DNA of 64,000 nt from Strigamia acuminata (taxonomy: Eukaryota; Arthropoda; Chilopoda; Geophilomorpha; Linotaeniidae): the NCBI GenBank assembly GCA_949358305.1, contig OX442322.1, positions 2,294,001-2,358,000 of the forward strand, written 5' to 3'. The translations under genes were made by a program, and so were the position numbers. The notes under the pieces were generated by a model. The model was given only the letters and a program-made list of their open reading frames with translations. It was not told the origin of the DNA and ran no database searches. This document shows positions 13,037 through 62,031 of the stretch, piece after piece (positions within the stretch are counted from its first letter, which is position 1; every line of letters starts with the position of its first letter).

Positions 13037-13041
13037 CTAGG

Positions 13042-19230: not shown

Positions 19231-21693
19231 AAATTCCTTGTTTCGGCTGGATTTAAAGTGAAGAACGTTCGTCAGGCGTAGACACGGCGAATCCTCGTCA
19301 CTGTCACACCGACAAACACAGAATTGAAACCGTAAGTTTCCCTGCAACGATGACTTATTGAAGCGGATGTTTTTTATTTTTTATCAAACTCACCCGTTTT
19401 GTAGCAGTCACTTGTTGCTCGGTAAAGTTGGGAAAGTCGATTAGCAGGCCCGTGATTCGTCTCGATGGTCGCCGATCGATCAGTGCTGGTCACTAGACCG
19501 ATAGCGCTGTTGAATTGATTGATTAAGTCACTGAAATTGGTCGGAGAAGTTTGTTTAATTACCTGCTTTCCATGGCCAGTTTCGGCGGTCATGTTGCGGT
19601 CTCAACCGATGAGAATCGTGGCGTTCATGTGACGTCACGAATTCTCGCGGAGGAGCGTAACCATGGCGACGGTCTCAGCACCGCAGCCGCGATTTTTAAG
19701 CAGGTTTTATTTCTATGCCCGGGGATCGTGGGAGTTTTTCGCTAAAAAATTCGGAAAATTGTCGTGGCAATAAAATAATATTGTTTCGTGGTGTTTTTCC
19801 TGCGCTTTCTGAGAAAGATTGTCTCTTTAGATTGGGAATTAGTTATTGCACCAATTAGAGAGGTGAGGGTGTCGTGGGACCCAATCACAGGTCACGGGTC
19901 GAGGATTGTTCTCTGTTTAGACTCGAGGTTTCTTGTTTCTGGACATAGTCCCCGTGTGTCACTTGTTTTCCAGAGAGCGACCATTCAGCATCAGCTGACT
20001 TTTGCTTGTGTTCGTGTTCGGGAAAAGTTTTTGAGTTGCGATATGAGGGTAAGACACAAATTTATTTTCTGGTTGCATCATTTACTGTGGCCCTTTTTCT
20101 CGATTAAACCCGTGACCGATTGCTTTCTTTCGTGCCCCGACCCCGTTATTACGTGCAACTTAGCGCTCGAGCAGGCAGTTTCGGCCGCCGCTCCTCGCTA
20201 GGAACGCAGGCGGATCAAAGTCATTTTGACCGCCGCGATCGAGTCGACCATTTAGTGTTCAGAAAACATTTTAAGAAGTATTTTGTGTGAAGAAAACCTG
20301 AAATTTCGGCGTTTTCTCTCACGAAGCGCTTCGTGATACCTGATGCGATTGGTTTCGGTTTGCCATCCGTCTTCCATCTCGAATTTTCTATCACTTCTTT
20401 TCGCTTCTCTTTCTTCTTTTTCCCGATGTTTCTGTGAAAGGTTCTCTCGATTAGTTTTCCTTCTTCAATTCAGTTTTAATTTTTTTTTTGTTTTATTTTT
20501 CATTTTTTTTTTGATTACGTATCTTTTTTTTTGTTTTTGCCTCCATTCGCCGTGTCCCCGGTTTTTCTTTCTGAAATAGGTGGGTATTGGCGTCGAATTC
20601 GCGAGTCAGCTGGCAAAGGTTACACCGTGACCCACGCCTAACCCCTCGGAATTCGTGCATCCCTCGTTCCTATTGTCCCTAATTGAGGTCAATGACCTGC
20701 GCGCTGGTCACTTGAGTGGCCAGCGGCACGATCTGAGACCCCCAATCTGGGAAAACAATAGCGGGCGGTGAGGGGTTGTCGCCGCGGTAAGAGGAGCCGA
20801 GAAGTTCGCTTCCCGAATCACTCGCCGCCGCGGCGCGACTCGAAGAAATCAAAGTCCACTTCCATTTGGAGTTTTTCGTTCTTTTTTTTTTCCCCTGTTA
20901 GTCTTCAACCCCTCCTTTGTTTATTTTGCCCCGAACTCAAGTTTCTTTCTCAGCCGGCGCATCTAAATTTATTTTTTTTTTAATTCGATAAGATTATTTG
21001 GTTTTATTTCTTTTCTCTTTTCGCTCGCGTTCAGGCAGAAAAGGTGTATCACTTTTTCGCTCGTTCGCGTATTTCTTTTCGAGACATCCTTTTTGTCACA
21101 ATCGATGGTTTGTTCGTGTTTTCTGCGACTGAACTGGGTTCTGATTCAGGCGCCAGACTTCACCGACATGCCGGGCCGTTGTGCAGAACGGTCCGCCATG
21201 TTGGTTGCGGTTTGCGTTGCCTTCACCATCCCTTGCCGTGTCGTGTGTGAAATTCTTACAACCATCATTTCTTAGACCAGGCACCACGCTTTGGTCAGGA
21301 TTTTATATCATCCTGATTCGGTTTAACGAATTCAGGAAATTATTTCGGCTTGCATCGCCGGAGCACCGAAAATGGCTTGCGCCAGCTCGGTGTCTTCGAC
21401 GATTGTGTAACATCCACTGACGTCATGTGCTCGCGTGGGAGGTTGATTTTGTCGCCTCCTCGTGCCGGAATCCTCATTCATAGCCCTTACGTCATACTCT
21501 CAGCCCAACTTTTTCCCCCCTTCCCCTTTCACTCCTTGATATAGTTTATTAATTTTGTATTTATTTTATCTAGAATTCGGGAAATGGTGGCGGCGACGGT
21601 AGCGAACAGTGGCACATCTGCCCTGTTTGCTCGGGAGAGCGCTGGGAGACATCTGCGGGCGGATGGGATTCGCCGTGCGGCAACTGCCTCGGC
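19231..21693 (+). other. Gypsy-3 spacer between ORF1 and ORF2
   Basis: About 2.4 kb with T-rich tracts and short unconvincing ORFs. No integrase core, envelope or zinc knuckle was seen. This is where the rest of pol would lie in a complete element, so it may be degraded or replaced sequence. Confidence 0.45.
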
Positions 21694-23886: not shown

Positions 23887-24560
23887 AAAGCCTCGATCGT
23901 CGTCCTTGGACGTAGAATTGTACAAACGACGGACCTCTGGTCCCGATAATATTTTTTCCCTAGCAGCATGCCGTGAGATGCCTGTCCCGGGACATGAACA
24001 CCGAGCCGGAAGCGAGTGACGAGACGGAGACGCCACGCCACAAGCCCACGTGCCCGACGAAAACGGATACCGGAGTTTTCCCGTTCCATCGGTGGACCTC
24101 CCGACTGTGGATCTTGGTCAGGTCCCGGTCGTTGTATATATTTTATTTCTTTTTTTTAATTATCATTTTTATTATTTGTTTAACGTAACTTTATTTCCGA
24201 TTATTTTATGGGAGGATTGACCGGCCTCTCCCATCCTTGTTTTGTTTTAATTTTTGTTTTATGATTTCGTCCCGGGCTTGTTACGTTCAGGCCCGGTGAA
24301 TTATTATTTACATTGTATTACATCAATAGTTCGTTTTGTTTTCGGCCAGTCTAGGGCGAGGTGGTTCCTGTCGCCCAATGCTGCTAACATCGTTGACCGA
24401 CGGTGCGGTGGTTTTCGGTCCACCAGCACCGAAGGTCGGCACCGGTAGCCCGACAAGTTGTGGTCTTCGACTGACTTCGTTGTTGTGTCTGCCTCGACTT
24501 GCGTGTCCCCGTCGGTGTTGTGTGTGGCCCCTTAGACCTACCTTTTCGTGGGGGGGGAGA
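23887..24560 (+). other. Gypsy-3 3' UTR with polypurine tract
   Basis: Non-coding between ORF2 and the 3' LTR. The last bases before the LTR are a run of G followed by AGA (24549-24560), an excellent polypurine tract. Nothing else recognised. Confidence 0.7.
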
Positions 24561-25153
24561 TGTGACCGCCAGGCCACCTAGGTGACCTGCGGCACTGCCA
24601 CACACCACCGTGCGGCCCCAAAGGTCAACCCCTACGTGGGTAGTTGACCTAGCCCGGGGAGGAGGGAGTAGAGTGGTGTGGTGAGGAGGGAGTGTTGTGA
24701 GAGAGTTGAGTGTGGGACACGGCCTGAGAAGGACGTGCCTGCAGCAGCTCCCCGAGAGGAGAAGGTGTTCATCTGGGAGGGACAAGAAGTGTCCCGGTTT
24801 GACTCTGTACTCCTCACCATTCACCACGATGATACTCAGTATGACGGCTCCCACCGTTATACAGCCTCCATGAGTGGACGCGTGGGTCGTAGGTAAGTAC
24901 GACACGAATGTTAAGTCGAACCGACCACGCCACGCATTGGGTTCCCACCCAGTGTGTGGCGGGTCGGTTGCCGGTGCGGTGTGCCTTCGTGGCACCTCTG
25001 CAGCGGGTGACGGGTTTCCCCATACCCCTAGACAACGCAATAAAGGCCAACCAACCAATATTGTGGGAAGTCTCCGTCATTTACGTAAAGTATGCGTCCC
25101 TACCAAGTGTTCTCAGTCCCCTGACTACACTGGAAGAGACCATAGCAGTCACA
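24561..25153 (+). mobile_element. 3' LTR of Gypsy-3
   Basis: 593 bp, TGTGACCGCC...AGTCACA with TGTGAC/GTCACA inverted tips, directly after the polypurine tract. Matches 13042-13632 except for about two substitutions and the two missing first bases there. The Gypsy-2 sequence resumes at 25154. Confidence 0.9.
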
Positions 25154-25928
25154 ATCTCTTGCCGTGGCCAAACTCTGCAGATGTTGAAATTCTGAAAAGT
25201 CAGTCAATGCCTTTTTAACACGACCAAACGTATTTTGCATCGCTTCACTGCGGTGTGCGATATACTTAATCGAGCTTGAACTATCCCTAGTAAGCATCTC
25301 AACAGTACCAAACGGATCCCTTGACGTGAACAAATACACAGGGGTGTGTCCAGTCACCCTGTGCACTGCAAACCTATACGCCATTAGAACCCTTCCAATT
25401 TGCATATCCCAATCTTCATGCCCTTCTGTTAACAAATGCGACAATATGGCTGCTATTGTTGCATTAAAACGCTCAACCTGACCATTACACTGTGGTCTAT
25501 ATGAAGTGGTATTCACGTGCTCAATACCTAAACTTCCACACCAATCGTTAAAAACCTTTGACATAAATGGCGTCCCTTGATCCGTTAAAATGGTTTTCAT
25601 TGGACCATATCTGTTTATTAGCATCAAGTCCAGTGCCGCAACGATTGTTTCGGCTCTTTGATCTCTCAAAGGCATGGCTTCCGGCCATTTGCTAAAATAG
25701 TCAACCGCCACGATAATGAACTGGTTGCCTCTGTCCGTGGTTTTTAAAGGACCCAAAATATCACAACTTATTCGCTCTAATGGTACTCCCACCGGTTGAA
25801 ACATCTGAATCGGGGCCTTTCCCCTTGGTCCCTTCCTAGCGTTGCATTGGTCACATGACTTGACATGTTGCCTGATGTCCTTGTAGATGCCCGGCCAATA
25901 GTACTTCTGCCTAATGGTCTCGAACATC
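25154..25928. repeat. 775-bp direct repeat flanking Gypsy-3, right copy
   Basis: Right-hand partner of 12260-13034. It codes integrase residues of Gypsy-2 on the minus strand. Confidence 0.9.
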
Positions 25929-36563: not shown

Positions 36564-38547
36564 ATGGCTGAATCCGACAAAGCAACCACGCATCATTTCT
36601 CCATTGCACAACTTAATTCAGACAATTACAAATCGTGGTTGAAAAATATTCAGTTTTTATTACTTGAGAAAGGTGTGGACCAGTTTATCGACGAGAAACC
36701 TCCCGTGAAGGACGATACGTGGGATGAGTCTCGGAAACAACTTCACGACGACCGCTACAAACGTGCAAAAGCTCTTCTCGGTTTGTTTGTTGAGCCGCAA
36801 TATCAGGACATCGTGCTTGCCTCCGCCACTGCTTGCGACGCATGGGTCGCATTGAAAGCGACATTTCAACCAACTTCTCTTGCCCGAATTGCTACACTCG
36901 ATTCGGGTTCTTTCGACCACGTGTGTCCAGAGCGTGATTGTTTTGCCAATTACAAGCCGGTCTCCAATTATTTCATCATTTTAGGTGAAGGTCGTTCTCG
37001 AGTGGATGGTATTGGAGATGTGGTGTTGCGAGTTATGCATAATGCATAATGCATAATGTTTTGCATGCCCCTGCTTTCTCGCGTAATTTGGTGAGCCTAT
37101 CGAAGATCGATCGTGCCGGACTGCATTTGGCGGCCGCGAATGGTGTTATGTCCATTTATCACCCTGATGATAAAGCCAAACAATTTCTTTTAACGGCCAA
37201 ACTGAAGGATGATTCATATTCCCTTCAGAATATTTTGCCCGCGGATTTTACATCTGCGACGCCTCCTACGGCTACATCCGTCCCAGTTCCCAAACAGGTT
37301 CTTTCTGCGTCGACTTTGAAGTCACCTGTCCGGCATGTCACTTTTGCCGAGGAACCTGTTTCAACCTCTTCTCCCAAACCCCGAAGAGAAAGTTGTCTGA
37401 TTTGGAGCTTTGGCACCGGAGATTTGGGCATTTTAATGCCGACGGTATTCGCCACTTGGCGAAATCTCCGAATGCTTCCGGAATAGAAATTTCTACTTCC
37501 GCATTGCCAGCATGTGCTGTGTGTGCCCGTGCCAAATCCACCCGTGCTTCATTTCCAAGCATTAAGGAAGGTATTTCTTCCAAGAAGCCTTTAGATTTGC
37601 TTCATATGGATGTTTGGGGTCATTCGAATACCACATCCATCGGTGGCGCTCGTTATTTACTAACGATCGTAGATGACTTTTCCCGTTATTTTTTTGTTGT
37701 GCCCATGAAAACGAAGGGGGAAGTTTTTGAAGTTTTTAAGTTATTCCATGCTCGGATGGAGGTTTTATGGGGGGCTGGCTGCATTAAAACAGCCAGGACT
37801 GATAATGGCTAAGAATTTTGTTCCAAAAATTTCGAAAATTTCCTAGTCCAGCGCGGCATCAAGGCACAGCGCACGAATGTCTATACACCCGAGCAGAATG
37901 GCGTCGCGGAACGCCTAAACCGCACCTTACTTGAGGGCGTGTGTTCCTTCTTTTTGTCCACGTCTTTGCCTCGACAGCTGTGGGCTGAGCTCGCGGTTAC
38001 TATGATTTATTTGAAGAACCGCTTCCCACATAAGTTTCTGAACAATCTTGTCCCCTATTGTCTGTGGTATGGCAAGACTGTTCCACTCAAACACCTTAAG
38101 GTGATTGGGTCAAGGTGTTTCGTGCACATCTCGAAGCAAGTCCGTGGTTCGAAATTCGAATCCCAAGCCTGGACTGGCATCGTGGTTGGCTATGCCTTTC
38201 GCACGCGAGGTTATCGCGTGTGGTGCCGTAAGCGCAGAGAGGTTTTTGAGTCGAAACATGTCCGTTTTGATGAGGAATGTATGTGGGGACATCCTCGTTT
38301 TTATGAGGGCACCGAGATCACCGATGAAGGTGCGATATCGGTGGAGCTTGAGCCGGATTTTATTTCCGACCAATTGCCTCCCGTTCCCCAAGGTGGTGCT
38401 CCTGCACCCCAAGCTCCTCCTCCTGCACCTCCACCTCCTCCTGGACTTCCACCTCCTGGACCTCCACCTCCTGGACTTCCACCTCCAGGTGCACCTATTG
38501 CTTTGCAACCCCCATTAAGAGCACATCCTTTGCCTCCACCTCCTGTT
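36564..38547 (+). pseudogene. Copia-1 Gag-protease-integrase, broken, 5' half
   Basis: Starts MAESDKATTHHFSI with a copia Gag (NSDNYKSWLKNI...). At about 36900 Gag jumps directly into the protease (DSGSFDHVCPERD), so the zinc knuckle region is deleted. A repeated heptamer (GCATAAT, three times at 37035-37057) shifts the frame after RVMHN. Integrase follows: LWHRRFGH zinc domain, LLHMDVWG (Asp), ARTDNG then a TAA (37810) at the expected Glu-Phe, and EQNGVAERLNRT (Glu). The C-terminal domain ends in a proline-glycine repeat (PPPGLPPPGP...) and is cut by Copia-2 at 38548. At least three disabling changes. Confidence 0.85.
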
Positions 38548-38879: not shown

Positions 38880-39650
38880 ACAAACAACGTGCGAAAAACA
38901 GGCAGAGTGAAGAGAAATACCTCAAGTCAACCACAGGTGAAAAAGTGGGCGTTTCTCCTCAAAATCCAAGATGGCGGCGTCCATAAGGAATGGAATCAAC
39001 CTGTGCTTATGCCAAGGATCCACGGTTCTACAAGCGATTATTGGTCATCAAGCGACACAGGATCATTAATTGGGTTCGAACATTATAGAACTTTTATTTA
39101 ATACGTTTTTTTTGGCCATTTTCGGACGATTTTCCGAATATCGCGAGGCGCGATACGTAACGTCGACGTGGCGTTAATTTTCGCCGAGAAAACAACTCGA
39201 CGACAAATACGCAAGGACGACGACGCTCGACAACCACACGGGAAGTGTGAACGAGCAATAAACGAACGGGAATTGCCAAAAACGAGAAAATTCTCGAAGG
39301 AACTGAATTTTTCGAGGCGAAAAAGACGGAAAAACGAGGGAAAATCAACAATACGACGATTTTTCTCAACCACACGTGAAGTGTGATTCCAGGCTGTCGA
39401 TACAGAACAAGCATTTAATCTACAGCAGGAAGACATCATATTTGAACAATTTATTTCGTTTATTTCGTTTACTATTGTTGAATACCATTGTTAGCTTAGT
39501 GTTGTTACTAGGATACACTAACATAGTATTAAGAGCGAACTAACATCGCAACACTGCACCCAGTTGCGATTACCAGTATTTCAAAGTGTTTTGGAGCAAT
39601 CTTGTGTGTGTTTTTGCTGTGTTTCTGGTGTGTTGGACACTAAATTCACA
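38880..39650 (+). other. Copia-2 leader
   Basis: Non-coding region between primer site and ATG 39651. Short ORFs on both strands are not supported. A CAC(A)CG-G(A)AG-TGTGA motif appears at about 39235 and 39375. Confidence 0.5.
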
Positions 39651-42600
39651 ATGGACACGGAAAAACTCGACCGGAAGATTACACTTTTGAATAGGACGAA
39701 CTACGATACGTGGAAACAGCAAATCAAAGTGCTGTTGATGCACCACGGATGTTGGGCTTTCACCGATGGTACACAAGAAGCGCTGGCACCGGGAGCATCT
39801 TGGCGAGATCGCTCGGACTTTCAACTGCGAAAGGGGCGAGCTTTCAGCCTAATTTACTACGCCATTGAGGAGCAATACCACGAATTGCTCAGCGGGACCG
39901 AGGACGCGAAAACAGCGTGGGACACGCTAAAGACAAACTTCGAACCGGTCTCGAGGGCGAGAATAATACGTCTGTTGGACGAATTCTTCAATCTGAAGTA
40001 CGACCCAGCGACGGAGACGATCGGCGTATTCGCGGCGAAGATACGCAATGCGGCGAAGCGATTAGCCGACGTCAAACACGACTTGGACAATTTGTATCAG
40101 GCATTCCAGCTCATCCGATACCTGCCACAAGAATACCAGTCAATTGTGCAGAGTATTTATCGATGGGACGATAAGGATTTCACACTGGAAAAGGTTGAAG
40201 CGGAATTGGTCGCTGAGGAGGGCAGACTCGCGCAACAACGCAGAGATTCGGGCCAAGCGCCAATTACGGACGCTTTCAACATGGGAACAAGCACAAAGAG
40301 CAATGATAATTCGTCTAAATCCCAACAACAGCAAGGGAATAGCAGCCAAAACAACCGAGGCGGACAAAGGGGCGGCAAATTGAATTATCGAGGCGGCAAA
40401 AATTCGCGGAATTTCCGAGGAAATGCGACCGGATCATTACCACGGGGGCCGTGTTTTCGGTGCAATCAACCAGGGCACTGGGCAAGGGATTGCACAGCAC
40501 AATTACCGTCGAATAACAGCCAGAACACAAATACAGCGGAAGAATTGGACACAAACATGTTCGATGTCGGTTTTCTCATCGAGTTGAGCGAAGAAGAGAT
40601 GTTACAGTGCAGCGCAGCCAACAACTGTTGGATCTACGACACCGGGGCCACTGGACATTTCTGCAAAGACAGGAATCAATTCTTCAACTTCAAGGAAACC
40701 ACAGGGACAATAAGCCAAGCGGATAAGAAGACTTTAATTCAGATTCAAGGCGTCGGGGACGTTTGCGTGATGTGTTTGGTTGGAAGTGAGACAATTCCAA
40801 TCACATTGAAGAAAGTTTATTATGCGCCGGACATGCGACGAAATTTGTTGTCGGGACCGTGCATCGACGAAGCACGATGCAAAGTCGCCGTTGGCTCGGG
40901 ACTGGTCAAGATATACGATCCTCAGTGGAAGAGACAGCTGATGGAAGGCGTGAAGAAGGATCGTTTGTACTACATCAAGCTAAGCGACCAGAAGCCGGAC
41001 TTTGAGAAGTTACGACAAAAAGCGAATAGCAAAGCGAATGTTGGCGAACGGAAGAAACAAGAGCTAACTATTTCAACACAAAGTACAACGAAGAGTGCGT
41101 CTAATCCTGAGGAAGCAAGACTTTGGCATGAGTGGCTCGGACACATCTATTTTCCAAGCGTCCAAGCAATGAGCAAAGGAGGTGCAGTAATTGGGTTGCC
41201 AGTTTTGGACGTGCCAATTACACAGTGCGACGTTTGCACATTAGCCAAGAAGAAGGCGATTCCTCATAAGTCGTTGCCAGGAATTAGATTGACAGAGCCA
41301 CTCCAATTGCTACACATGGATGTATGTGGAGCATTTAGTACACCAACACTCTCGGGAAACATATACTTCTTAACTATCACGGATGACTTCTCTCGTTATT
41401 CGACAGTGTACTTAATGAAGAAGAAGGACGAAGTATTTGACATTTTCCAAAAACACGTGAAACGAATAGAACGATTGCTTGGGAAATCGGTTCTCGCAAT
41501 TCGTACGGATAACGGTATGGAGTTCTGCTCAAACAAATTTGGAGAGTATCTCCAAGGTCTAGGAATCGCTCACGAGAGGACTAACGCGTACACTCCAGTC
41601 CAAAATGGCGTTTCCGAGAGACTCAACCAGACATTAGCGAATGGAATGCGAGCGCTTGTGTACGATGCCGGCTTGGAACATCGATTCTGGGGAGAGGCCA
41701 TCCTGACTTTCAACTATCTCAGGAATAGAATCGCAAAGCTGAATTCGGACAAGACGCCGATGGAATTGTATTACAGACGGAAACCATCACTTAGACATTT
41801 GAGAAAATTCGGGAGTTTATGCTTTGTGCAGAAAAGGATCCGAGATGGCAAAATCGACAACAAGAGTCTGCATGGCATTATGCTCGGGTATTCAAGAATC
41901 ACGAAAGGATATAGAGTGTGGCTGCCGGAGTTTTCCAAAGTAATTGAAACCAACGACGTAAAGTTCGTGGAGAGCAGGCGCGGTGTTGAAGACGTGCTGG
42001 GCCTACCAGAAAAATACACGACATACATCGATAATTTGGACGACAATTTGGACACTGACAATGAGCGCCAATATTATTCGGATGAAGATGTCAGGCCGCC
42101 GCTACCCCCGCCAATACCAGTTAAGAAGAAGGAAGATCCACAACTGGAATTGCCCCCAGTTAAATTGAAATTTAGACTGCCAGATGACAAGTTGCATCAT
42201 AATTTACCAGAAGTGAAGTTGCAGGGCACTTTACCACAACCCGGACAAGGACTTTTGAATCCAGTTCCAACTATTCCTGCACTAGTTTGGAAGAAAACGG
42301 AGAAAGTCAGACCGACTGGACAAAGGGATGTCGAGTACACAATCGAGGGCTACGACAAACCCAAGTTACGCTCGATACCCGAGGTGAAGCGTTACTGTAC
42401 TGACCACAATCTTCGCGTACCAGCGCATCTGTTTGAGGACAAAAGAAAGAAAAAGCCCTCAGAATCAAACACGACGACAGATAGTCTTGACGTGGACTTT
42501 GACGATATCAATATCAACTTCGAAGCCAATCATCTAGAGGTCCACGTACCCGTACGTTATGAGGAAATTGCGACTTTACCCGAAAAGGATGAATGGCGCC

Positions 42601-44118
42601 AAGTGATGAACGACGAGATTGACACCATGCATGAGCGCGAGGTTTGGGAACTTGTTCCACCGCCGCCCAGCACTAAGATAGTGGGTTGCAGATGGATTTA
42701 TACGACCAAACAGAACGAAGAGGGAGAAATTGCACGTTATAAGGCGAGACTTGTCGCGCAAGGGTTTTTCCAAGTCTACGGCGAATCCTATGAGGAGACA
42801 TTCTCACCCGTGGTAGACTTTTCAATCGTGCGCTTTATGTTCACGCTACTCGTCTGTATGCTCAAATGGTCATACATTCAGGCAGACGTCAAGTGTGCAT
42901 ACCTTTATGCAAAATTGCATAAAACAGTCTACATGCGTCAGCCAAAAGGCTTCATCATTGAAGGCAAGGAGAACTGTCTGCAGGCTCCTCCGAGCCATCT
43001 ATGGCTTGCACCAGTCTGGAAGAGAATGGGGAATAGAACTGGAGGAGACTTTATTGAAATTAGGACTAGAACACGTCAATTGGTGCAATTGCGTTTATAA
43101 GTACGGAGACATTGCGTATCTAATCGTCTACGTTGACGATATCGTTGTCTTCGGAAAGCAGTACGAAGATGCGATGAAAATACTCAACATGATTGGAACG
43201 CAATTCGATTTAGTGATTCTCGGACAGACGAAGAAGTTGCTAGGAGTCGAATTTCACTCGCACAAACAACAATTGGTTCTACATCAAAGATCGTACGTGA
43301 ACAAAGTGTTGTTGAAATTCAAAAATCACTTGGAACATGTGAAGATTCGATCTCAACCGATGACGAAAGCAACTGTTCTCACGAAACGAGATTGTCCGGA
43401 CACAATTGATGAATTCAAAGTCATGGAAGGAATTCCATATAGAAGCTTACTTGGATGTTTAGCATTCATCGCGTCGAGAACAAGGCCCGACATGACTTAT
43501 GCAGTGAACATTCTGAGCCAATTTCAATCGAATCCAGGGTGGGACCACTGGATTGCGCTACTGGATTTACTCAGTTATCTGAGAACAACAAGAAACCACG
43601 GATTAATGTTGTTCCCGAATGATCGGATCGAGGTAATCGGATACAGCAACTCCGATTATGCGAACAACAGAGATGACCGAATTTCCGTTGGAGGAACACT
43701 AGTGACTTTGGGTAGCACACCCATCTACTGGCGGACCTTCAAACAACGGAACGTGACACTGTCAACGATGGAGGCGGAGTACGTAGCCCTCACAGAAACT
43801 GTTAAGGACTATATTTGGATTGTTCGTGTTCTGCACGAAATATCCCCAGAATTGGCTGGAAGATTCTCTCATTATGTCATGTGCGACAACATATCAGCAG
43901 TGGACTTCACAAAATCTTGTGTCGAGAACAGAAAAACAAAGCACATTGACATCCGTTACCATTTTATAAGAGAACTTGTTAAAAGAGATAATCTTCTAAT
44001 CGTTCACGTAGGCACAAAGTCCAATCATGCCGACATTTTTACAAAGTCAGTTGACAAAGCTGACTTGGTAAAGTTTTGCGATCGCTTCTTAGTTGATTTG
44101 AGCACTTTGCGGGCTTAA
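39651..44118 (+). pseudogene. Copia-2 polyprotein (Gag-PR-IN-MBD-like-RT-RH), one frameshift
   Basis: Open from 39564; I prefer ATG 39651 (MDTEKLDRKITLLN). Numbering from 39564: copia Gag; zinc knuckle CFRCNQPGHWARDC (about 298); protease IYDTGATGHF (about 355); integrase zinc domain (LWHEWLGH...CDVC), core with HMDVCG, RTDNGMEF and NGVSERLN; an MBD-like segment from Trp909 to Cys945; RT entering at DEWRQVMNDEI, with AQGFF and FSPVVDF. Near 42975-42990 the frame shifts (ENCLQ against VCRLLRAIYGL). The second frame (to 44118) carries YVDDIVVF and RNase H (SNSDYANN, STMEAEYVALTE, ENRKTKHIDIRYH). One indel, so recently alive; a sequencing error is possible. Confidence 0.9.
42285..42398 (+). other. 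MBD-like domain in Copia-2
   Basis: Between integrase and RT: VWKKTEKVRP, QRDVEYTIEG, then KPKLRSIPEVKRYC. Matches the methyl-CpG-binding layout Trp, Arg at +7, a basic turn, D-V-x-Y, then an R-S pair and a helix ending in Y. The loop is shorter and the strand-turn longer than in the other two copies, so this is the weakest of the three. Confidence 0.5.
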
Positions 44119-44147: not shown

Positions 44148-44467
44148 TGTTAAGATATAATGTATATTGATGAGCAATCACTTTTACAACATGTGTGCAT
44201 ATATATCTTTGCGTATTATCATGTAACTAAGTGTTAGTGTATGTGTTTGGCCAACGCGAGTGATCGCAATGTTTGTTTACATACAGTGTCTGTATGCTGC
44301 CTACAGGTGGCGCTTTTTTTGCATTGAGGTCATGTGACCAATCAATAAAGATCACTTGATGTGTTGGTTCTCACCTGTTAACATGATGTCTCTTTCTTTC
44401 ACCTGATGTGTTTTTCCAATCCACTACATTTGTCACTAATTGCAGAAGTTTGCAACACTATTCAACA
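44148..44467 (+). mobile_element. 3' LTR of Copia-2
   Basis: 320-bp twin of 38548-38867, followed by the CTGTT target duplication and resumption of Copia-1. Confidence 0.95.
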
Positions 44468-44472
44468 CTGTT

Positions 44473-46335
44473 CACTCGCCACTGCGTCAGCCTCCGCCTG
44501 GTTCTCCGGCTGTGGGGGGCAAGTGGACTCGTTCTGAGGTGATTTGGCAGTCTGGTGCGTCTATGGGTCACACTGATGTGTATTTTTTCTCACCGGATCG
44601 TACCAGATTGCGGAGTCATGGCGACGTTGAGCGATATTGCGTTGACAATCGTTTAGCATACGATCGGAATTTCTTTGACTTTAGCACCCAAAATGTGCCA
44701 GTTCAAATGGTTGATCCCCCACCGGTAGATCCTAATGTTTCCCTTCCTCAAAGTCCTACGACTTCGGAAGAAGAAGCGTTTGCGGATTGCTATTCTACCG
44801 AACCACCACGGTACGCGCATTCCTTGTTTGCTCAGGTTCCTCGCACCTACAAGGAAGCTATTTCTAGCCCTGACCGTGTTCATTGGCAGAAAGCCATGAA
44901 GGAAGAGCTTGATCTTTTCCGTGAGCGAGGTGTTTACGAGTAAGTTGAAAAACCTCTTCCTGATGTAAACATTGTGGGGAATAAATGGGTCTACTACATC
45001 AAGCGTGATGCAGAAAGCATTGTGCGCCGTTTTAGGGCGATGTTAGTGGCTCAGGGTTTCAGCCAGAAGTACGGAGTTGATTATTCCGAGGTTTTCAGCC
45101 CCATGGTCAACTACGTCTTGATTCGCCTATTTTTCGTGCTTCTAGTGGTCGTTCTTGGCTGGCTAGACACACACCTTGATGTCAAGGGTGACTATCTTTA
45201 TGGCAACTTGGATGAAGCCATCTTCATGAGGATTCCCAGGGGCTGGGAAACTCCTCAAAACACTGGAAAAGTGTGGAGGCTTCATAAGGCTCTTTACGGC
45301 CTTCATCAGAGCGGGCGACAATGGAATTTTCGTCTCGTAGAAGTCTTGTTGGAGATTAATTTCCACAAGCTTCTAGGTGTAAATGGCGTTTTCATTTCCG
45401 ACACTTACAATGCCGTCATCCTGGTTTATGTCGATGACATGGTGTTATTCACCAAAGGACCCGGTCCTCGAGACCGAACTGTTAAAGCCCTTCGTGGATT
45501 TTTCACGATAACAGATCTTGGTCCGGTATCGAAGCTGTTAGGCGTCCAGTTTGATCGCGATGGTGGACATATTTCCATTCATCAACGCGATTACATTGAT
45601 CGGATCGCGGAAGATTTCGGAATCTCCTCCGAGCGTCTGTGCAGGGTTCCGATCGCTGTTGGCACAATGGTGAATTGCGCTAGAGAGGGAGAACGTGTGC
45701 TGAACGACGACGAGTGTCCTTACCGTTCTCTCATTGGGTCGCTTCTGTTTTTGGCTTCTCGCACACGCCCCGATATCCTCTTTCCGGTGATTTTGTTATC
45801 CCAGTACAACACGTGCTTCACTTCAAAGCACGTGGCCCTTCTTCTTCAGGTTCTCCTGTATTTGATGAACACGCGGAATTATTCGATTTTCCTTTCCGTG
45901 GTCACTGGAGACATCCTGTCAGGGCACTCCGATGCTTCTTGGATCAGGGATCGAGATTCGAGAAGGAGCTTCGGAGGGTACACGATTTCGATTTTCGGGG
46001 TTCCCATTTCCTGGGGCTGCTGTAAGCAGCGCTATTGCGCCTTAAGCATCATGGAGGCCGAGTTTTTGGCACTTCTCGATGGCGAGAAAGAGATTGTTTG
46101 GCTCCACGGAGCGATCGATCGGACCCGAATCTTCCGTTTGCCCACTCCGACGATGTGTTCTGATTGTCTACGATTTATTTTACGAGGAATGACATCGAAA
46201 ATCGTCGGACCAAACATAACAGTATTTCTTTTTGCGGGATTGGCTTACCGAGGGCGTTTTTGTTTTGCGAAAGATTTCCGGCGATTTAAATCCTGCCGAC
46301 ATTTTCACTTAGTTTTTCTCGCCTGCCCGTTTGCA
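44473..46335 (+). pseudogene. Copia-1 3' half: MBD-like domain, RT and RNase H, broken
   Basis: Continuation of Copia-1 after Copia-2. A frame with the MBD-like domain (44518-44640) runs to a TAA at 44941-44943 replacing the expected codon in VYE-VEKPLPD. RT follows from 44974: NKWVYYIKRD, MLVAQGFSQKYG, FSPMVNY, HLDVKGDYLYG, YVDDMVLF with both catalytic Asp. RNase H is present (SDASWIRD, SIMEAEFLALLDG). After CSDCL another frameshift at about 46165 moves the end (FTRNDIENRRTKH) into a different frame. Not functional. Confidence 0.85.
44518..44640 (+). other. MBD-like domain in Copia-1
   Basis: GKWTRSEVIWQSGASMG then HTDVYFFSPDRTRLRS and HGDVERYC. Lengths between W, DVY and RS are exactly those of vertebrate MBD proteins: Trp to Asp 17, Asp to Arg 12. 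The Asp and the second Arg of the methyl-CpG contact set are kept; the first Arg is Trp here. Confidence 0.7.
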
Positions 46336-46537
46336 ATTTTTATGCAAACATTTTTTCCGGTAATTTGATTATAGTTTTTCGATTTCCCGCATTTGTGCAT
46401 TTGTTGATTGGTTGATTCTGATTTTTATCACTGCTTGTTATGTACCGCAACCAATTGACTATCGATATTGTTTTTGGGGTTTTTTGTTTTTTCTTTCGAC
46501 TGAGATTTGTTTATTATCTCGGAGAATGGGGGGCTCT

Positions 46538-55211: not shown

Positions 55212-55784
55212 TGTGGTGGTATGCTGCAAAAACAGCACAGACTAGGCAGTGGAAACGCTTAAAAATAAGCCAACACGCACGATATAGCACGCACGAGACG
55301 TGCGGCGCGTCGTGTACGCGAATTCGAGCCGGTTCTGGTCGAATTTGCGTGGTGTCTGCACTTATCTACGTGCAGACACAAGAAACAAATTATTTATAAA
55401 CAAAATAAACGATTTATTAACCTAAAACTTACGAAAACAGGATTGAAAAACACAGGAGCACACTTAGCAGTGTGCGTCGCCATCTTGGAATAAAAGGCAG
55501 TGCGCTCTGGTGACAGAAGCGAGCGACACACAGGTATAAACAGATAGGCGATGCATGATGCCCAGTGTGTTAAGACACAGTTAATGCAGGCACCATGCAT
55601 TTCCCTTACAATATAAAGTAAATATACGGAAATATACTGGTAACAACCAGTTAAGTAGGAAATAAACACTAAATCATTTGGGGAAAGAAAATATAACAAC
55701 CAATGATGTGAAAAAGTTCAGGTAGCGTCATTACGCATCGAAAAAGCGTTAAATAAACGTCCGAAGTGGTTTCAAGGACCAACA
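55212..55784 (-). mobile_element. 3' LTR of Copia-3
   Basis: 573 bp, TGTTGGTCC...CCACCACA on the minus strand. Carries a 101-codon ORF (55699-55394) also present in the other LTR; probably a by-product. Confidence 0.95.
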
Positions 55785-55830
55785 ATTCCCTCCTTCGATG
55801 TGCAATGTCGATATTAACAGTTCGATGAAA

Positions 55831-58800
55831 TTATTTCGAGATGAAGATCCGGGACAACAAATTTCGGAGGCGTTCGGAACTAAGCCATTTCGTGAAAATA
55901 TCTGAAACATTTATTTCACCCGGAATTTTGCGGAGTTCGAAGCATCCGGCAATATGCCATTCTCGAAGCCAATGGAACTTCACTCGAATATGTTTGGTTT
56001 TCGAGTTCTCGATGTCGTTGTTCGTGAATTGGATCGAGGCGAGGGCATCGGAGAAAATAATCGGTTTCGATAATCGGTTTAACGGTGGAAAGACTCGATA
56101 GATACTGTCCAACCAGTATAACTCTTTAACGATTTCGACTAGTGCTACAAATTCGGCTTCCATGGTGGAACAGGCGACGCTGGTCTGCTTTTTGCAGCTC
56201 CAGCCGATTGGCACACAACCGATATAAAAGATGTATCCTCCGAAACTTCTCGATGTCGCAATGTCACTCGCCCACGACGCATCTGTGTATCCCCACAGCT
56301 GACTGGAATTACACCCCGAGAGTTCGATCGAGAAATCGCTCGTGTTCGCCACGTATTTGAGAACTTGGAGCAAACACTTGATGTGGCGGTGGTCGTAGCA
56401 GTTATTATACTGCGATAAAGCGATGACCGAATATAATATGTCGGGACGAGTGCGAGAAGCGAGGAATAATAACGATCCGATGAGCGATCGGTACGGAAAG
56501 TCCGGGAGATTATCCAACGAGCCTTTGACGAGCGTGGTCCCCGGTGTGACAGGCACTTTAATGAGTGCATCTGACGAAACGTTGAACTTTTTAAGAAGTT
56601 TGTCGATGTAGGAGCGTTGGGACATGAAAACTTTCCCATCGCGACGCACGAATTCTACCCCGAGTAATTTGGTTATTGGTCCGAGGTTGACGATGTCGAA
56701 TTTGCTGGAAATCAGCGCCAAAATACGGTCTCGGATACTCTCCGACGCGTAAAACACGACGATATCGTCCACGTAGACTAACATAACAGCCGAATGTCCA
56801 AATGCGTAAACGCAATTACAAGCGGGAAATTTCTGGAATCCGAGGTCGGTTAACGTCTCGTTGAGCTTCTGGTACCACATGCGCCCCGACTGGTGAAGAC
56901 CGTAAAGTGACTTGGTTAACAACCAGACGTTGTCGGGTGAGGTGCATGTGGCGCCGGCGGGAATCCGCATGTAAATTTCGTGGTCGAGGTCGCCGTAAAG
57001 GTAGGCACACTTGACGTCGAGGTGGAGATCCCTCCATCCTAGTAAAACGACTAGGAGGCAGAAAAAGAATCGGATGAGCACGAAGTTAACCACCGGACTA
57101 AAAACTTCATCGAAATCAACGCCCATTGTTTGGCGGAAACCTTGTGCGACAAGTCGAGCACGGTAGCGGTGAATTTTCCCGGTGGCATCCGATTTCAACC
57201 GAAAAATCCATTTACACCCGAGGATTGTCTTGTCCGGGGGTCGTGGAACTTCCTTATAAACTTCGCGTTCCTTGAAAGTCGTGAGCTCCTCATCGATTGC
57301 CTCGGTCCACTTCGGTGCCTCGGGTAGCTTAACAGCTTCGGCGTACGTGGACGGCTCTCGAAAACACATAAGGACGCGATGAACAGGTTGCTCGTCCTGC
57401 AATTGATGTTCGAGGTTGCCGAAAAAGAAAATGTCCTCCTCATACGGAAGTTGGTGAGCGACGCAATATCTTTCGATGTCCCCTCTCGACCTTAAGCGGA
57501 CACCGTGCTCCGGATAGTAATAAACGTCGACCTTGATTTTGCCAGGCGCTTGTTCTTTCCGGAGATGCTCTTCCCTCCTCCATCCGCTGAAGGGCGTATC
57601 TCCACCAATAAAACGATAGGGGCAGTGAAGAGCGCGTAACGGAGCGAGGGGCGGTGCAGGCGTTGCAGCGGCCGCTGGTAAGGCGGCTGCCTTATCGAGG
57701 AGATCATCGAGGAGATTATCAAGTGGATCATCTTCGGGGTCGTGCTCGAAATCACGTTCGGGATAGCGTTCGAAAAATTGTTCGATATCGTGATCAACGT
57801 CGAGTTCACTATCGCTGGCCTCAGGGGTGTGAGGTTGACGAGCCAAAGCATCGGGACGTAATCTCCTCCGAGGACGGTAAAGCGGAAGTGGTGGGTCAGG
57901 CGTGACGTCCAAATCGATGTCCTCCGGTACATCGTCCGCAAACAGAATAGGAGGAGGCAATTCATCAGCAATGTCCTCTTCGACCTCCTCGAGGACGGAG
58001 CGATATGAAGCGACTGATGAAGCGCTTGACGGAGCCCGATGGCGGAATTCATCATCGTCATTAGACGATTCATCGTCGGAATCACGACGTCGACGTGACC
58101 AGGGGACAGATGGGAAAGCGCCATCGTCAAAAGTGACACGAGACGGTGTAGTGACGCGAGAAGGCTCCTCCATGAATGGAGCATTTTCGTAGGGATCCGG
58201 AACGTAAAACGGCGAGCGTTTGAAATTCTGACGTTCATCGATTTGAACGTGAACGGATTCCGTGACGGTGTTCGTAGCCGGATTCCAAACCCGATAACCG
58301 CGAGTGTTGGAGGCGTAACCTACGAGGAATCCTTCCCACGCCCGTGGATCCATTTTGTTGCGCCCGGGTGCGGTGAAATGCACCCAGCATTTAGAACCAA
58401 TTTTTCGGAAATGTTTGACGGAGAGGGCACGCTGGCGCCATAAAACATATGGAACTTCGTCGTTAAGTTTCGAATGCGGGCTGCGATTTTTAACGTACGA
58501 AAATGTCACAGCGAGTTCAGCCCAAAGTGTGTGCGGAAAACCGGTTTCGGAGGTAACGGAGCGAAGATAGTCGCCCATCGTCCGGTTTAGGCGTTCGGCG
58601 ACCCCGTTCATTTGTGGGCTTCCGGGATTGGTCCGTTGTGCGACAATGCCCTTGTCAGCGAGGTAACGGTCAAAAGTCTTAGAAATAAATTCCCCGCCGC
58701 GATCCGTGCGAATTGATTTGACGCGGGAATCCGTAATACGTTCAACGCGAGAGACAAAGTCTTTGAAAGTTGTGAAGACGTCGGATTTGCGTGCAATCGG

Positions 58801-60771
58801 AAAAATCCACGAATATCGGGTCGCGTCGTCAACAATGGAGAAGGCATAATCAGCACCGCCAATCGAAATCAGTCTTGACGGGCCCCAGACGTCCATGTGC
58901 AGCAACTCCAACGGTTTGGTCGTCGAAGGTGTGGGAATCGGTTTATGCGAGGCGCGCGTGGACTTGGCAATGCGACATGAGTTGCAGGAAAGTTCTTGTC
59001 GAACCGCAGCCGGATCGAGTCCATAAACTTGGGAATTGTTCGCCAAAGTCCGCATGGCTTTGGTGTGGAGATGGCCCAACCTGGCGTGCCATAATCCCGT
59101 GGCATCAGCAACGTTGACATTCGAAGTCTTAACCGGATTAGGGATAGGAAGTGCCTTTGTTTTGGCAACGGGAGGAGGAGGAGATGATAGGATGTTGGAA
59201 TACATCCGGATCTGTTGTGGTTGAGATCCGGGAACAGGAGTTGGAATAATCGGGGAAGGAGGAGGCAGTAGTAAGGTGTTGGGAGAGATAGGCAGGCGGA
59301 AGTCAGTTATCTGGACGTTCGATTTCTGTCTGGACTTCTTTGAGGGCATCGCGGGAAAATCTTCCTCCTTCGTGATGAGAGTCATCGGCGCAGTAGTCGG
59401 AGGTGACATTGGGATGGGCGGTGTACTCGAAACAACAGTCGGCGACGCAAATGGCGAAATTAGTCCATCTACGAAGTAAAGTCCTGACTTTTGCTTCGCC
59501 CGAAGAACACTTTGTTTGATATCCGTCCCATATGTATGCAACTCCGAATTGTAAATGTGTATGTGATGCCCACATTTATCGACTAGCGAAACCGAAATTA
59601 AATTAGCGCCGAAATCAGGTGCGTACAAAACATCGCGGAGAAGTACGGTGCATTCACAGCCATCGATGAGTGACTTGACTGGAACATTCCCTTTTCCGGT
59701 AACTTTGGAGCTTCCTTGTCCCAATTCGATATTAAAAGGGACGACCTCAACAAAGTCCAAGAACCACGATTTAACGTGTGAAACGTGGTCGGTGGCGCCG
59801 CAGTCAACAATCCATTCGTGAGATTGGACGAAATGAACGGTAGGAACCTGGATCGCAGGTGGTGCGGACAGGAGATATGCTGCATCTCGGCGCGGGCGTG
59901 AAGACTCGCGAAACTGTCCCTGCTGCTGTTGATTCGGGTTCACATTCGGATTCGAGCCTTTATTGCGGCGTCGACTCTTGCTGCGAGATCGTGTCTGAAG
60001 CGTAGCTACCGGCTGTTGCCCAGTTGTTTGCTTGCGAGGATGCTGGCACTTATTGGCGTAGTGTCCAAGCTCGTTGCAATTGAAGCAACGCACCTGCGCA
60101 AGCGGGCGCGGGGGTCGCGACTGGTTACGTCCTTGTCGCCCAGTAGCATAAGCGGAGGAATTACCGGAGTTTCGGTTCGAATGCGACTTTAATCGTAGAT
60201 ATTCCGACAACAACTGTTCGGAGACTTTAGCCGGGGTAAACTCTGCCAGCGGCCAATGATAAATGGCAAAAGTCGCCTGGTCGTATTCGTCCGGAAGAAA
60301 GTCTAAATACTGGTACGCGTGATGTCGAGGGAGGATGTCTTCACCGACGTCTTTAAGTTGGCGGACCATAAGGTCAACGCGGCTGAGGAAATCGGCCATT
60401 TCTTCGCCGGGCTCCAACTTGAGCTGCAGGAACTCACGGCGCATCGCCGCTTGGCGGGCGAGAGAGCTGGGGGCGTAAATTTTCGCTAAAATGTCCCACG
60501 CCTGTTTCGGAGTGGTGCAACCGTCGAGGGCCGACTGTTTGGCCTGCGAGACGTGGCAATAAATGGTCCCCAGCGCTCGGGCTTTCCGACGTTGCCATTT
60601 TCGCCAAACGTCTTCATCGACGTTGGCTTTCACTAGTTCCTCCGTTTCGGTGACGTGGTGCCATACGCCGTCGGACATCAATAGCATTTTAATTGCACGG
60701 TGCCAGTGTTCGTAATTGCCGGTCACGAGAATCGGCACATGGCCTGACGACTGGTCGGTGGCCTTTTTCAT
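55831..60771 (-). CDS. Copia-3 polyprotein (Gag-PR-IN-MBD-like-RT-RH), intact
   Basis: Open from ATG 60906; I prefer ATG 60771 (MKKATDQSSGHVPI). Residues counted from 60906: copia Gag 46-260; zinc knuckle CFNCNELGHYANKC about 278-291; protease EWIVDCGATDHV about 370, with DCG where copia proteins usually have DSG or DTG; integrase zinc domain (LWHARLGH, CNSC), core LLHMDVWGP, RTDRGGEF and MNGVAERLN; acidic linker with Ser/Asp/Pro; MBD-like domain 1108-1148; RT with KWIFRLKSD, VAQGFRQ, HLDVKCAYLYG and YVDDIVVF; RNase H with YTDASWASD, STMEAEFVAL, SDALASIQF and IENSKTKHIRV. All catalytic residues seem present. The product would form particles, copy the RNA and integrate the cDNA. Confidence 0.95.
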   Translation of the reverse strand: MKKATDQSSGHVPILVTGNYEHWHRAIKMLLMSDGVWHHVTETEELVKANVDEDVWRKWQRRKARALGTIYCHVSQAKQSALDGCTTPKQAWDILAKIYAPSSLARQAAMRREFLQLKLEPGEEMADFLSRVDLMVRQLKDVGEDILPRHHAYQYLDFLPDEYDQATFAIYHWPLAEFTPAKVSEQLLSEYLRLKSHSNRNSGNSSAYATGRQGRNQSRPPRPLAQVRCFNCNELGHYANKCQHPRKQTTGQQPVATLQTRSRSKSRRRNKGSNPNVNPNQQQQGQFRESSRPRRDAAYLLSAPPAIQVPTVHFVQSHEWIVDCGATDHVSHVKSWFLDFVEVVPFNIELGQGSSKVTGKGNVPVKSLIDGCECTVLLRDVLYAPDFGANLISVSLVDKCGHHIHIYNSELHTYGTDIKQSVLRAKQKSGLYFVDGLISPFASPTVVSSTPPIPMSPPTTAPMTLITKEEDFPAMPSKKSRQKSNVQITDFRLPISPNTLLLPPPSPIIPTPVPGSQPQQIRMYSNILSSPPPPVAKTKALPIPNPVKTSNVNVADATGLWHARLGHLHTKAMRTLANNSQVYGLDPAAVRQELSCNSCRIAKSTRASHKPIPTPSTTKPLELLHMDVWGPSRLISIGGADYAFSIVDDATRYSWIFPIARKSDVFTTFKDFVSRVERITDSRVKSIRTDRGGEFISKTFDRYLADKGIVAQRTNPGSPQMNGVAERLNRTMGDYLRSVTSETGFPHTLWAELAVTFSYVKNRSPHSKLNDEVPYVLWRQRALSVKHFRKIGSKCWVHFTAPGRNKMDPRAWEGFLVGYASNTRGYRVWNPATNTVTESVHVQIDERQNFKRSPFYVPDPYENAPFMEEPSRVTTPSRVTFDDGAFPSVPWSRRRRDSDDESSNDDDEFRHRAPSSASSVASYRSVLEEVEEDIADELPPPILFADDVPEDIDLDVTPDPPLPLYRPRRRLRPDALARQPHTPEASDSELDVDHDIEQFFERYPERDFEHDPEDDPLDNLLDDLLDKAAALPAAAATPAPPLAPLRALHCPYRFIGGDTPFSGWRREEHLRKEQAPGKIKVDVYYYPEHGVRLRSRGDIERYCVAHQLPYEEDIFFFGNLEHQLQDEQPVHRVLMCFREPSTYAEAVKLPEAPKWTEAIDEELTTFKEREVYKEVPRPPDKTILGCKWIFRLKSDATGKIHRYRARLVAQGFRQTMGVDFDEVFSPVVNFVLIRFFFCLLVVLLGWRDLHLDVKCAYLYGDLDHEIYMRIPAGATCTSPDNVWLLTKSLYGLHQSGRMWYQKLNETLTDLGFQKFPACNCVYAFGHSAVMLVYVDDIVVFYASESIRDRILALISSKFDIVNLGPITKLLGVEFVRRDGKVFMSQRSYIDKLLKKFNVSSDALIKVPVTPGTTLVKGSLDNLPDFPYRSLIGSLLFLASRTRPDILYSVIALSQYNNCYDHRHIKCLLQVLKYVANTSDFSIELSGCNSSQLWGYTDASWASDIATSRSFGGYIFYIGCVPIGWSCKKQTSVACSTMEAEFVALVEIVKELYWLDSIYRVFPPLNRLSKPIIFSDALASIQFTNNDIENSKTKHIRVKFHWLREWHIAGCFELRKIPGEINVSDIFTKWLSSERLRNLLSRIFISK
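57463..57585 (-). other. MBD-like domain in Copia-3
   Basis: Residues 1108-1148: Gly-Trp, Arg1116 seven after Trp1109, GK, D1127-V-Y-Y-Y, R1139-S1140, then GDIERYC. The three residues that contact methyl-CpG in known MBDs (Arg, Asp, Arg) have counterparts here (R1116, D1127, R1139), and Asp-to-Arg spacing (12) is that of vertebrate MBDs. Lies between integrase and RT, where other retroelements carry targeting domains. Confidence 0.75.
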
Positions 60772-61443
60772 GATTGCACGGAGAAAAAAGCGTAGAAATG
60801 GGAAATTGACGCACAATCGACGCACAATCGACGCACAAACGAAGCACAAATTACGATGCGAAGCACTTTCCGTAGCACTGTCAAAGCGGAAACCAAGAAT
60901 GGGCAATTCCTTCTGAAGGAATTAAATAGCTTTCGGTTGCCAGTCTGAGAGGGTCCGTTCGACTTCCTGGAGCCGCGGGAAACCTCACTTGTACCACGAC
61001 AAGCACAACCGAAAAATACAACGGCGCTTGCCCGGATTCGGACGAAGGGCGCCGAGGATTCTAATTGTCCCACACCAAAATCCCCACTTAAAATTAACAA
61101 AGGTAATTCGACTCTGAAAGGCAAAATAAGGCGAAATTGACGAATCAGTCGCGGTGCACGTCGCAACACGCGATCCTCGTGTGAAAAACACGGATATGTG
61201 CGATTTTAAACGAAAAATCGCGAAAAATGAACGAAAATCGTCGATACTGTCGCACTCCGGGGTGCTAAACAGCGGGTTACACCCGTTTCTCGGTGATAAC
61301 GTCGTGTAGACGTCGTCGCATGTCGAAAATCGGTGTAAATCGGCGAAAAATCTGAAAATATAGAAAATTTCCGCAAAATTCGCGAAAAAATCGCGAAAAT
61401 TGTGGAAAATTAAGGAAAAAACGAGGCCCTGGTGTCTTTCCAG
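60772..61443 (-). other. Copia-3 leader
   Basis: Non-coding between primer site and ATG 60771. Contains a short tandem repeat of CGACGCACAAT (three times, about 60805-60842). Confidence 0.6.
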
Positions 61444-61456
61444 TCCTCTGCTACCA
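61444..61456 (-). other. Copia-3 primer binding site, initiator Met tRNA 3' end
   Basis: Minus strand TGGTAGCAGAGGA, two bases after the 5' LTR, complementary to the 3' end of initiator tRNA-Met. Confidence 0.85.
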
Positions 61457-61458
61457 AT

Positions 61459-62031
61459 TGTGGTGGTATGCTGCAAAAACAGCACAGACTAGGCAGTGGA
61501 AACGCTTAAAAATAAGCCAACACGCACGATATAGCACGCACGAGACGTGCGGCGCGTCGTGTACGCGAATTCGAGCCGGTTCTGGTCGAATTTGCGTGGT
61601 GTCTGCACTTATCTACGTGCAGACACAAGAAACAAATTATTTATAAACAAAATAAACGATTTATTAACCTAAAACTTACGAAAACAGGATTGAAAAACAC
61701 AGGAGCACACTTAGCAGTGTGCGTCGCCATCTTGGAATAAAAGGCAGTGCGCTCTGGTGACAGAAGCGAGCGACACACAGGTATAAACAGATAGGCGATG
61801 CATGATGCCCAGTGTGTTAAGACACAGTTAATGCAGGCACCATGCATTTCCCTTACAATATAAAGTAAATATACGGAAATATACTGGTAACAACCAGTTA
61901 AGTAGGAAATAAACACTAAATCATTTGGGGAAAGAAAATATAACAACCAATGATGTGAAAAAGTTCAGGTAGCGTCATTACGCATCGAAAAAGCGTTAAA
62001 TAAACGTCCGAAGTGGTTTCAAGGACCAACA
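61459..62031 (-). mobile_element. 5' LTR of Copia-3
   Basis: 573 bp, twin of 55212-55784. AATAAACG near its right part may be TATA-like or polyadenylation sequence. Confidence 0.95.

What the first reader, a model, noticed from the sequence alone, without database searches (positions are those of the whole stretch)
57463..57585. Methyl-CpG-binding-like domain in copia polyproteins, best case Copia-3
Seen: between integrase and RT of the intact Copia-3 polyprotein is a compact segment G-W...R(+7)...GK...DVYYY...RS...ERYC. Known: MBD proteins share this order and spacing, and Arg, Asp and Arg contact methyl-CpG. All three have counterparts here (R1116, D1127, R1139) and the Asp-Arg distance is identical. 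Inference: the domain could steer integration to methylated DNA, or to chromatin carrying it, as chromodomains do for some Gypsy elements. The same position in two other copia families (separate findings) makes chance unlikely. I know of no description of MBDs in copia elements, but cannot search.
Basis: partly seen in the sequence, partly recalled or inferred. Interest (0 to 1): 0.92.

Follow-up and report, generated by a model that had tools for sequence, protein, structure and literature searches.

The report
Methyl-CpG reader inside copia retrotransposons
A jumping gene in what is probably a centipede genome carries its own copy of a protein module that reads DNA methylation; it is real, but this kind of element was already reported in arthropods in 2019.

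Summary
Copia-3 (55212-62031, minus strand) is an intact copia element with identical 573-bp LTRs and a 5-bp target duplication. Between integrase/SH3 and reverse transcriptase it carries a methyl-CpG-binding domain (MBD): Pfam 24.0 bits against a cut-off of 21; the 13 best PDB sequence hits are MBDs; the best fold matches are MBD/TAM domains. The contact residues are kept. The host genome, probably a centipede's, holds many such elements: 150 of 1,092 candidates were scored and all 150 pass the cut-off; spiders have relatives. A reverse-transcriptase tree fits one gain and one loss. The belief that this was undescribed is wrong: de Mendoza, Pflueger and Lister (Genome Res 2019) reported a functionally active MBD captured by an arthropod retrotransposon family; I saw only citations of it. 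Possibly new: MBD copies crowd near contig ends (77 of 129 within 3 Mb, against 22 of 143 other copia hits), and the abundant families have replaced a Tyr that reads methyl-cytosine. Verdict: real, known in kind, with a testable extension.

The parts
55212..55784 (-). 3' LTR of Copia-3 (573 bp)
   Evidence: 100% identical to 61459-62031; element flanked by the 5-bp duplication GGCAG
61459..62031 (-). 5' LTR of Copia-3 (573 bp)
   Evidence: 100% identical to the other LTR
55831..60906 (-). Gag-Pol open frame, 1,691 aa from a TTG (an ATG at aa 46, window 60769-60771, is a likelier start)
   Evidence: open frame; Pfam gag, zinc knuckle, protease-type barrel, integrase, SH3-like, MBD and RVT_2 in copia order
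58615..58920 (-). integrase core (aa 663-764)
   Evidence: Pfam rve 42.8 bits
58222..58431 (-). retroviral SH3-like domain after the integrase (aa 826-895)
   Evidence: Pfam PF25597 83.3 bits
57442..57585 (-). methyl-CpG-binding domain (aa 1108-1155), with R1116, D1127, Y1129 and R1139
   Evidence: Pfam MBD 24.0 bits; PDB sequence hits; predicted fold
56548..57264 (-). reverse transcriptase (aa 1215-1453)
   Evidence: Pfam RVT_2 189.6 bits
44440..44937 (+). MBD-bearing piece of a second copia family (Copia-2), with a stop before the RT
   Evidence: Pfam MBD 34.8 bits; MBD then RT
42258..42461 (+). decayed MBD remnant in Copia-1
   Evidence: aligns with the other two; no Pfam MBD match at E 1

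Best explanation
Copia-3 belongs to an arthropod copia clade that captured an MBD. The domain sits after the integrase and its SH3-like tail, ahead of reverse transcriptase, and probably stays attached to integrase after processing. There it works like the chromodomain of chromoviruses: it tethers the pre-integration complex to methylated, CpG-dense DNA, so new copies land in TE-rich heterochromatin and spare host genes. Shown here: the domain, its fold match, contact residues, purifying selection, a tree pattern of one gain and one loss, an intact recent copy, and a skewed genomic distribution of MBD copies. Inferred: methyl-CpG binding by this copy, tethering of integrase, and that the skew comes from targeting and not from selection.
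For: Domain and fold. Genome: 150 scored of 1,092 candidates, all 150 over the cut-off, none in the 14 control genomes; of 149 tallied, 119 lie in frames of 1,500 aa or more, against 0 of the 150 listed RVT_2 hits. Relatives: 31 of the 120 listed homologues match my MBD profile at E 1e-4 or better, 28 of them at 27 bits or more, spiders among them. Residues: in the 31 foreign rows Arg166 28, Asp176 25, Tyr178 27, Arg188 23 (MBD2 numbering recalled). RT tree: 47-row clade (100/96), 41 rows with and 6 without a clear MBD, 2 label changes. Selection: MBD dN/dS 0.03-0.20 in the 5 of 6 pairs that could be computed, linker 0.22-0.56 in 6 of 6. Recency. Distribution. Flank CpG: 5.38 against 2.75 per 100 bp, p 0.012, 17 and 18 pieces; all 20 and 20 pieces, 4.25 against 3.06, p 0.026. 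Host methyltransferase exons: 11 matches at five places. S. maritima: 75.8% of 719 TEs highly methylated (PMC7343188, passages).
Against: Among 17 distinct MBD rows from this genome only 4 keep Tyr178 (Val 6, Ile 4, Trp 2, Glu 1), so methyl selectivity may be weaker in the abundant families. Flank CpG o/e does not differ (p 0.32; p 0.17). One MBD score band (1626-aa type) is not concentrated at the C1 end: 1 of its 6 C1 copies lies beyond 60 Mb; C13 and C5 show little crowding. End crowding could reflect gene-poor ends, longer survival, or local duplication (near-tandem pairs occur). The model is modest (mean pLDDT 72.4, three sequences, two of five models below 40) and no Foldseek hit reaches E 0.001. 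Copia-3's own Pfam score is only 3 bits over the cut-off.
Confidence: 0.8

Rival explanations
1. The domain is a true MBD, but serves to counter silencing: it binds the element's own methylated DNA or competes with host MBD proteins that recruit repressors, so the element stays transcribed. The distribution is a by-product of selection against insertions near genes.
For: MBD proteins normally mediate silencing (recalled). S. maritima methylates most TEs (PMC7343188, passages). Other copia elements of the genome, without a listed MBD, are also abundant.
Against: The domain lies in pol between the integrase region and RT, near where chromoviruses keep a targeting module (recalled). Other intact copia elements do not crowd at the same ends.
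Confidence: 0.12
2. The domain keeps the MBD fold but has drifted to a more general DNA- or chromatin-binding role (CpG density, unmodified DNA, or a protein partner).
For: Tyr178 kept in 4 of 17 distinct rows of this genome; Trp at the Arg166 position in the Copia-2 copy; decayed or lost MBDs in part of the clade.
Against: Both arginines and the Asp are kept in all 17 rows (rows were picked with a pattern that asks for the Trp, the Asp and the second Arg, but not the first Arg). Copia-3 keeps the Tyr. The 2019 title calls the captured domain functionally active.
Confidence: 0.2
3. Chance resemblance of a linker to MBD.
For: Copia-3 itself scores only 3 bits over Pfam's cut-off.
Against: Four other elements score 34.8-46.9 bits; shuffles reach at most 7.5 bits against 48.0; same place across a clade; fold.
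Confidence: 0.01

Closest known systems
MBD-bearing retrotransposon family of arthropods (de Mendoza, Pflueger and Lister 2019, Genome Res 29:1277-1286, doi 10.1101/gr.243774.118; seen only as reference entries and in citing passages)
   Same: An arthropod retrotransposon with a captured, functionally active MBD (title). Lewis et al. cite it for a recent, highly methylated TE family in the centipede S. maritima (PMC7343188, passage). Recalled from its abstract: copia elements with a host-derived MBD in Strigamia and spiders that bind and accumulate in CpG-dense methylated DNA.
   Different: Another assembly, perhaps another centipede species.
Chromoviruses (Gypsy elements with an integrase chromodomain)
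   Same: A captured chromatin reader in pol, thought to target integration (recalled; one such title seen in a reference list).
   Different: Gypsy gene order and a chromodomain; no chromodomain is listed for Copia-3.
Retrotransposons that carry cytosine methyltransferases (de Mendoza et al. 2018, Nat Commun 9:1341; title seen in a reference list)
   Same: Capture of a module of the methylation system by retrotransposons.
   Different: A writer, not a reader.
MBD2/3 proteins of animals
   Same: The best PDB sequence hit of the domain is MBD2. The host has an MBD2/3-like gene (MBD_C, 57.3 and 32.6 bits).
   Different: The host gene's MBD is split by an intron and has Phe at the Tyr178 position; the copia MBD is in one frame.

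Membership tests
MBD domain (PF01429) | profile match over the curated cut-off | tested here: met
   24.0 against 21 bits in Copia-3; of six further proteins scanned, four at 34.8-46.9 bits, none for Copia-1 and L032
MBD domain (PF01429) | MBD/TAM fold | tested here: met
MBD domain (PF01429) | Arg, Asp, Tyr, Arg that contact methyl-CpG (roles recalled) | tested here: met
   all four in Copia-3; Tyr in only 4 of 17 other distinct rows of the genome
MBD domain (PF01429) | selective binding of methylated CpG | not testable with these tools
   needs a binding assay
Arthropod MBD-bearing retrotransposon family (2019) | copia-type Gag-Pol (integrase before RT) with LTRs (copia: recalled) | tested here: met
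Arthropod MBD-bearing retrotransposon family (2019) | MBD in the polyprotein, one clade with spider elements | tested here: met
   RT clade 100/96 with Araneus P0011, Trichonephila P0007 and P0034, Stegodyphus P0026; not compared with the published sequences
Arthropod MBD-bearing retrotransposon family (2019) | insertions in CpG-dense DNA | tested here: inconclusive
   higher CpG density near MBD copies (p 0.026; p 0.012), CpG o/e not different; small samples, 4 kb away from the hits
   the SH3-like tail lies at aa 826-895, over 200 residues upstream; no other family is listed at the MBD
Chromovirus chromodomain | chromodomain profile match | tested here: not met
   none listed in the Pfam scan at E 10

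The most novel reading that the evidence does not exclude
In this centipede the MBD has turned copia elements into specialists of one terminal zone per chromosome: copies read methylated, CpG-dense DNA there, insert, become methylated themselves and so enlarge the target.
Probability: 0.25. Interest if true: 0.65.

Novelty: already known. Interest (0 to 1): 0.38.

Why it matters
A retrotransposon that carries a methylation reader turns the host's silencing mark into an address. The class is known, but a long-contig assembly holding many copia copies with an MBD beside many without one (150 scored matches in each search, of 1,092 and 2,633 candidates) is a natural experiment for asking whether captured chromatin readers set where elements accumulate.

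Tried and rejected
Searching the large protein set with the Copia-3 MBD region alone found nothing; an abundant family's MBD plus RT did. A scan of viral contigs found nothing. Literature searches did not surface the 2019 paper. One search led to PMC7343188, whose passages brought the paper to mind; its reference list confirmed it. One search for 'CopiaMBD' found none; one search listed nine papers holding part of its title; one search listed two. The paper itself is not held. One of the 150 PF01429 matches (C3:20309085, 35 bits) has no copia match around it, looks by eye like a host TAM-type gene, and was dropped from all position counts. One search failed part-way and was replaced. Chance, chromodomain and integrase C-terminal domain were considered and rejected.

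Limits. The position test uses two lists of best-scoring hits (149 and 150). The RVT_2 list was taken as MBD-free because none of its 150 hits lies within 2.5 kb of the 149 MBD hits and none has a frame of 1,500 aa; only L031 and L032 were checked directly (L032). Contigs of unknown length were left out of the end-distance test (129 of 149 and 143 of 150 kept). The cut points (60 Mb, 13 Mb, 2/3/5 Mb) were chosen after seeing the data. The family split is by score band. Two of the 20 MBD flank pieces lie inside or close to a neighbouring listed element and a third is near one; one search leaves out these 3 and 2 of the others. The homologue list is the best 120 of 4,414, from a query that included the MBD, which favours MBD rows. 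The tree dropped RT segments with a stop or under 190 positions (number not recorded), the window's Copia-1 and Copia-2 among them; a near relative in L019 and L018 stand in. The 17 own rows were found with a residue pattern.

Full report

It is a family. The window's own genome (237.5 Mb, 157 contigs) gave 150 scored MBD matches of 1,092 candidates, all over the cut-off, with none in 14 control genomes. The eight best loci are all copia: six show the MBD in a frame with neighbouring copia domains, and two (L002, L006), which have broken frames, show it in another frame. Of 149 tallied matches 119 lie in open frames of 1,500 aa or more; the remaining match of the 150 is not copia. Of six further proteins scanned, four score 34.8-46.9 bits and two, Copia-1 and the non-MBD element L032, give no MBD. 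Among the 120 listed homologues of an abundant family (of 4,414), 10 carry precomputed PF01429, and 31 match my profile at E 1e-4 or better, 28 of them at 27 bits or more. Named MBD rows are the spiders Araneus, Trichonephila and Stegodyphus; the listed pseudoscorpion (Cordylochernes) rows have none. In a reverse-transcriptase tree of 135 rows, 41 MBD rows and 6 rows without a clear MBD form one clade (100/96); the label needs 2 changes, which fits one gain and one loss (the bootstrap had not settled). Three of those 6 rows still match weakly (14.8-19.2 bits), which suggests decay. The domain is under purifying selection: dN/dS 0.03-0.20 (5 of 6 pairs computable) against 0.22-0.56 in the linker before it; integrase gives 0.02-0.07 in 4 of 6 pairs, and RT was computable in 1 of 6 (0.04) (several dS values are near saturation).

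The host. Mitochondrial COX1 is closest to the geophilomorph centipede Mecistocephalus marmoratus (85%), then horseshoe crabs (83%), so the host is probably a centipede; the species is unknown. It has cytosine methyltransferase exons at five places (11 matches) and an MBD2/3-like gene. The centipede S. maritima has 75.8% of 719 TEs in the highly methylated group (PMC7343188, passages), one Dnmt3 and four Dnmt1 genes (PMC4244043, passages).

Where the copies sit. Distance to the nearest contig end has a median of 2.3 Mb for 129 MBD hits and 7.5 Mb for 143 other copia RT hits (Mann-Whitney p 8e-16); within 3 Mb of an end lie 77 of 129 against 22 of 143. On C1, 20 of 37 MBD hits lie beyond 60 Mb against 5 of 60 (p 1.4e-6; 15 of 31 against 5 of 51, p 1.4e-4, after collapsing neighbours within 50 kb); on C3, 16 of 16 against 12 of 26 lie below 13 Mb. 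On C6 all 12 MBD hits are in the last quarter, against 2 of 15. On 7 of the 10 contigs of known length (C1, C3, C4, C6, C8, C9, C12) more than half of the MBD hits lie in one terminal quarter; C5 and C13 do not show this and C10 has no listed MBD hit. One MBD score band does not follow the pattern on C1 (1 of 6). DNA about 4 kb from the hits is richer in CpG near MBD elements: median 4.25 against 3.06 per 100 bp (20 pieces each, p 0.026), GC 43 against 36% (p 0.0065), CpG o/e not different (p 0.32). Leaving out pieces with a second listed copia hit near, 17 and 18 pieces give 5.38 against 2.75 (p 0.012), GC p 0.005, CpG o/e p 0.17. This fits targeting to CpG-dense heterochromatin, but also survival of insertions in gene-poor ends. 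Cut points were chosen after seeing the data.

A twist. Among 17 distinct MBD rows of this genome outside the window, 4 keep Tyr at the MBD2 Tyr178 place; the others have Val 6, Ile 4, Trp 2 and Glu 1, among them the abundant families. Of 31 foreign rows 27 keep it. All 17 own rows keep both arginines and the Asp (they were picked with a pattern that asks for the Asp and the second Arg). The host's MBD2/3-like gene has Phe there. In mammalian MBD3 a Phe at this place weakens methyl selectivity (recalled). So the largest families may read something a little different.

Novelty. The class is known. [quoted passage not shown] Lewis et al. cite it for a recent, highly methylated TE family in S. 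maritima. A whitefly paper cites it, with another, for copia elements that are preferentially methylated and gather in CpG-dense regions (PMC11721087, passage). I did not read the paper; from memory its abstract reports binding of the captured domain to methylated CpG-dense DNA, accumulation in such DNA in Strigamia, and in methylated gene bodies in a spider.

Noticed in passing
L030 (G000:C5:5728400-5738399): The host MBD2/3-like gene has its MBD split by an intron and Phe in place of MBD2 Tyr178.
   Followed up: partly
window 39564-44118: Copia-1, through a near relative in L019, falls by RT in a branch of the MBD clade that holds spider rows, but its MBD has decayed below Pfam's detection.
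   Followed up: partly
window 36573-38382 and 44461-46368: Copia matches on either side of Copia-1 cover successive parts of the polyprotein, so Copia-2 seems to be split by a nested Copia-1 insertion.
   Followed up: no
window 44440-46368: The Copia-2 copy has Trp at the MBD Arg166 position and a stop between MBD and RT; the sister element in L018 has Arg.
   Followed up: partly
P0004, P0006, P0008, P0009, P0015, P0025: A subclade inside the MBD copia clade that has lost or decayed the domain.
   Followed up: partly
G000:C3:20309085: An MBD-family match (35 bits) with no copia match around it, by eye a host TAM-type gene.
   Followed up: partly
window 5681-7732: A 683-aa open frame with a PHD-finger-like cysteine pattern, possibly a DNA transposon protein (by eye).
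   Followed up: no
window 12260-25453: Duplicated Gypsy-like pieces: 300-bp blocks at 12260/25154 and 13041/24562 are listed as 100% identical and pol-like frames match by eye.
   Followed up: no
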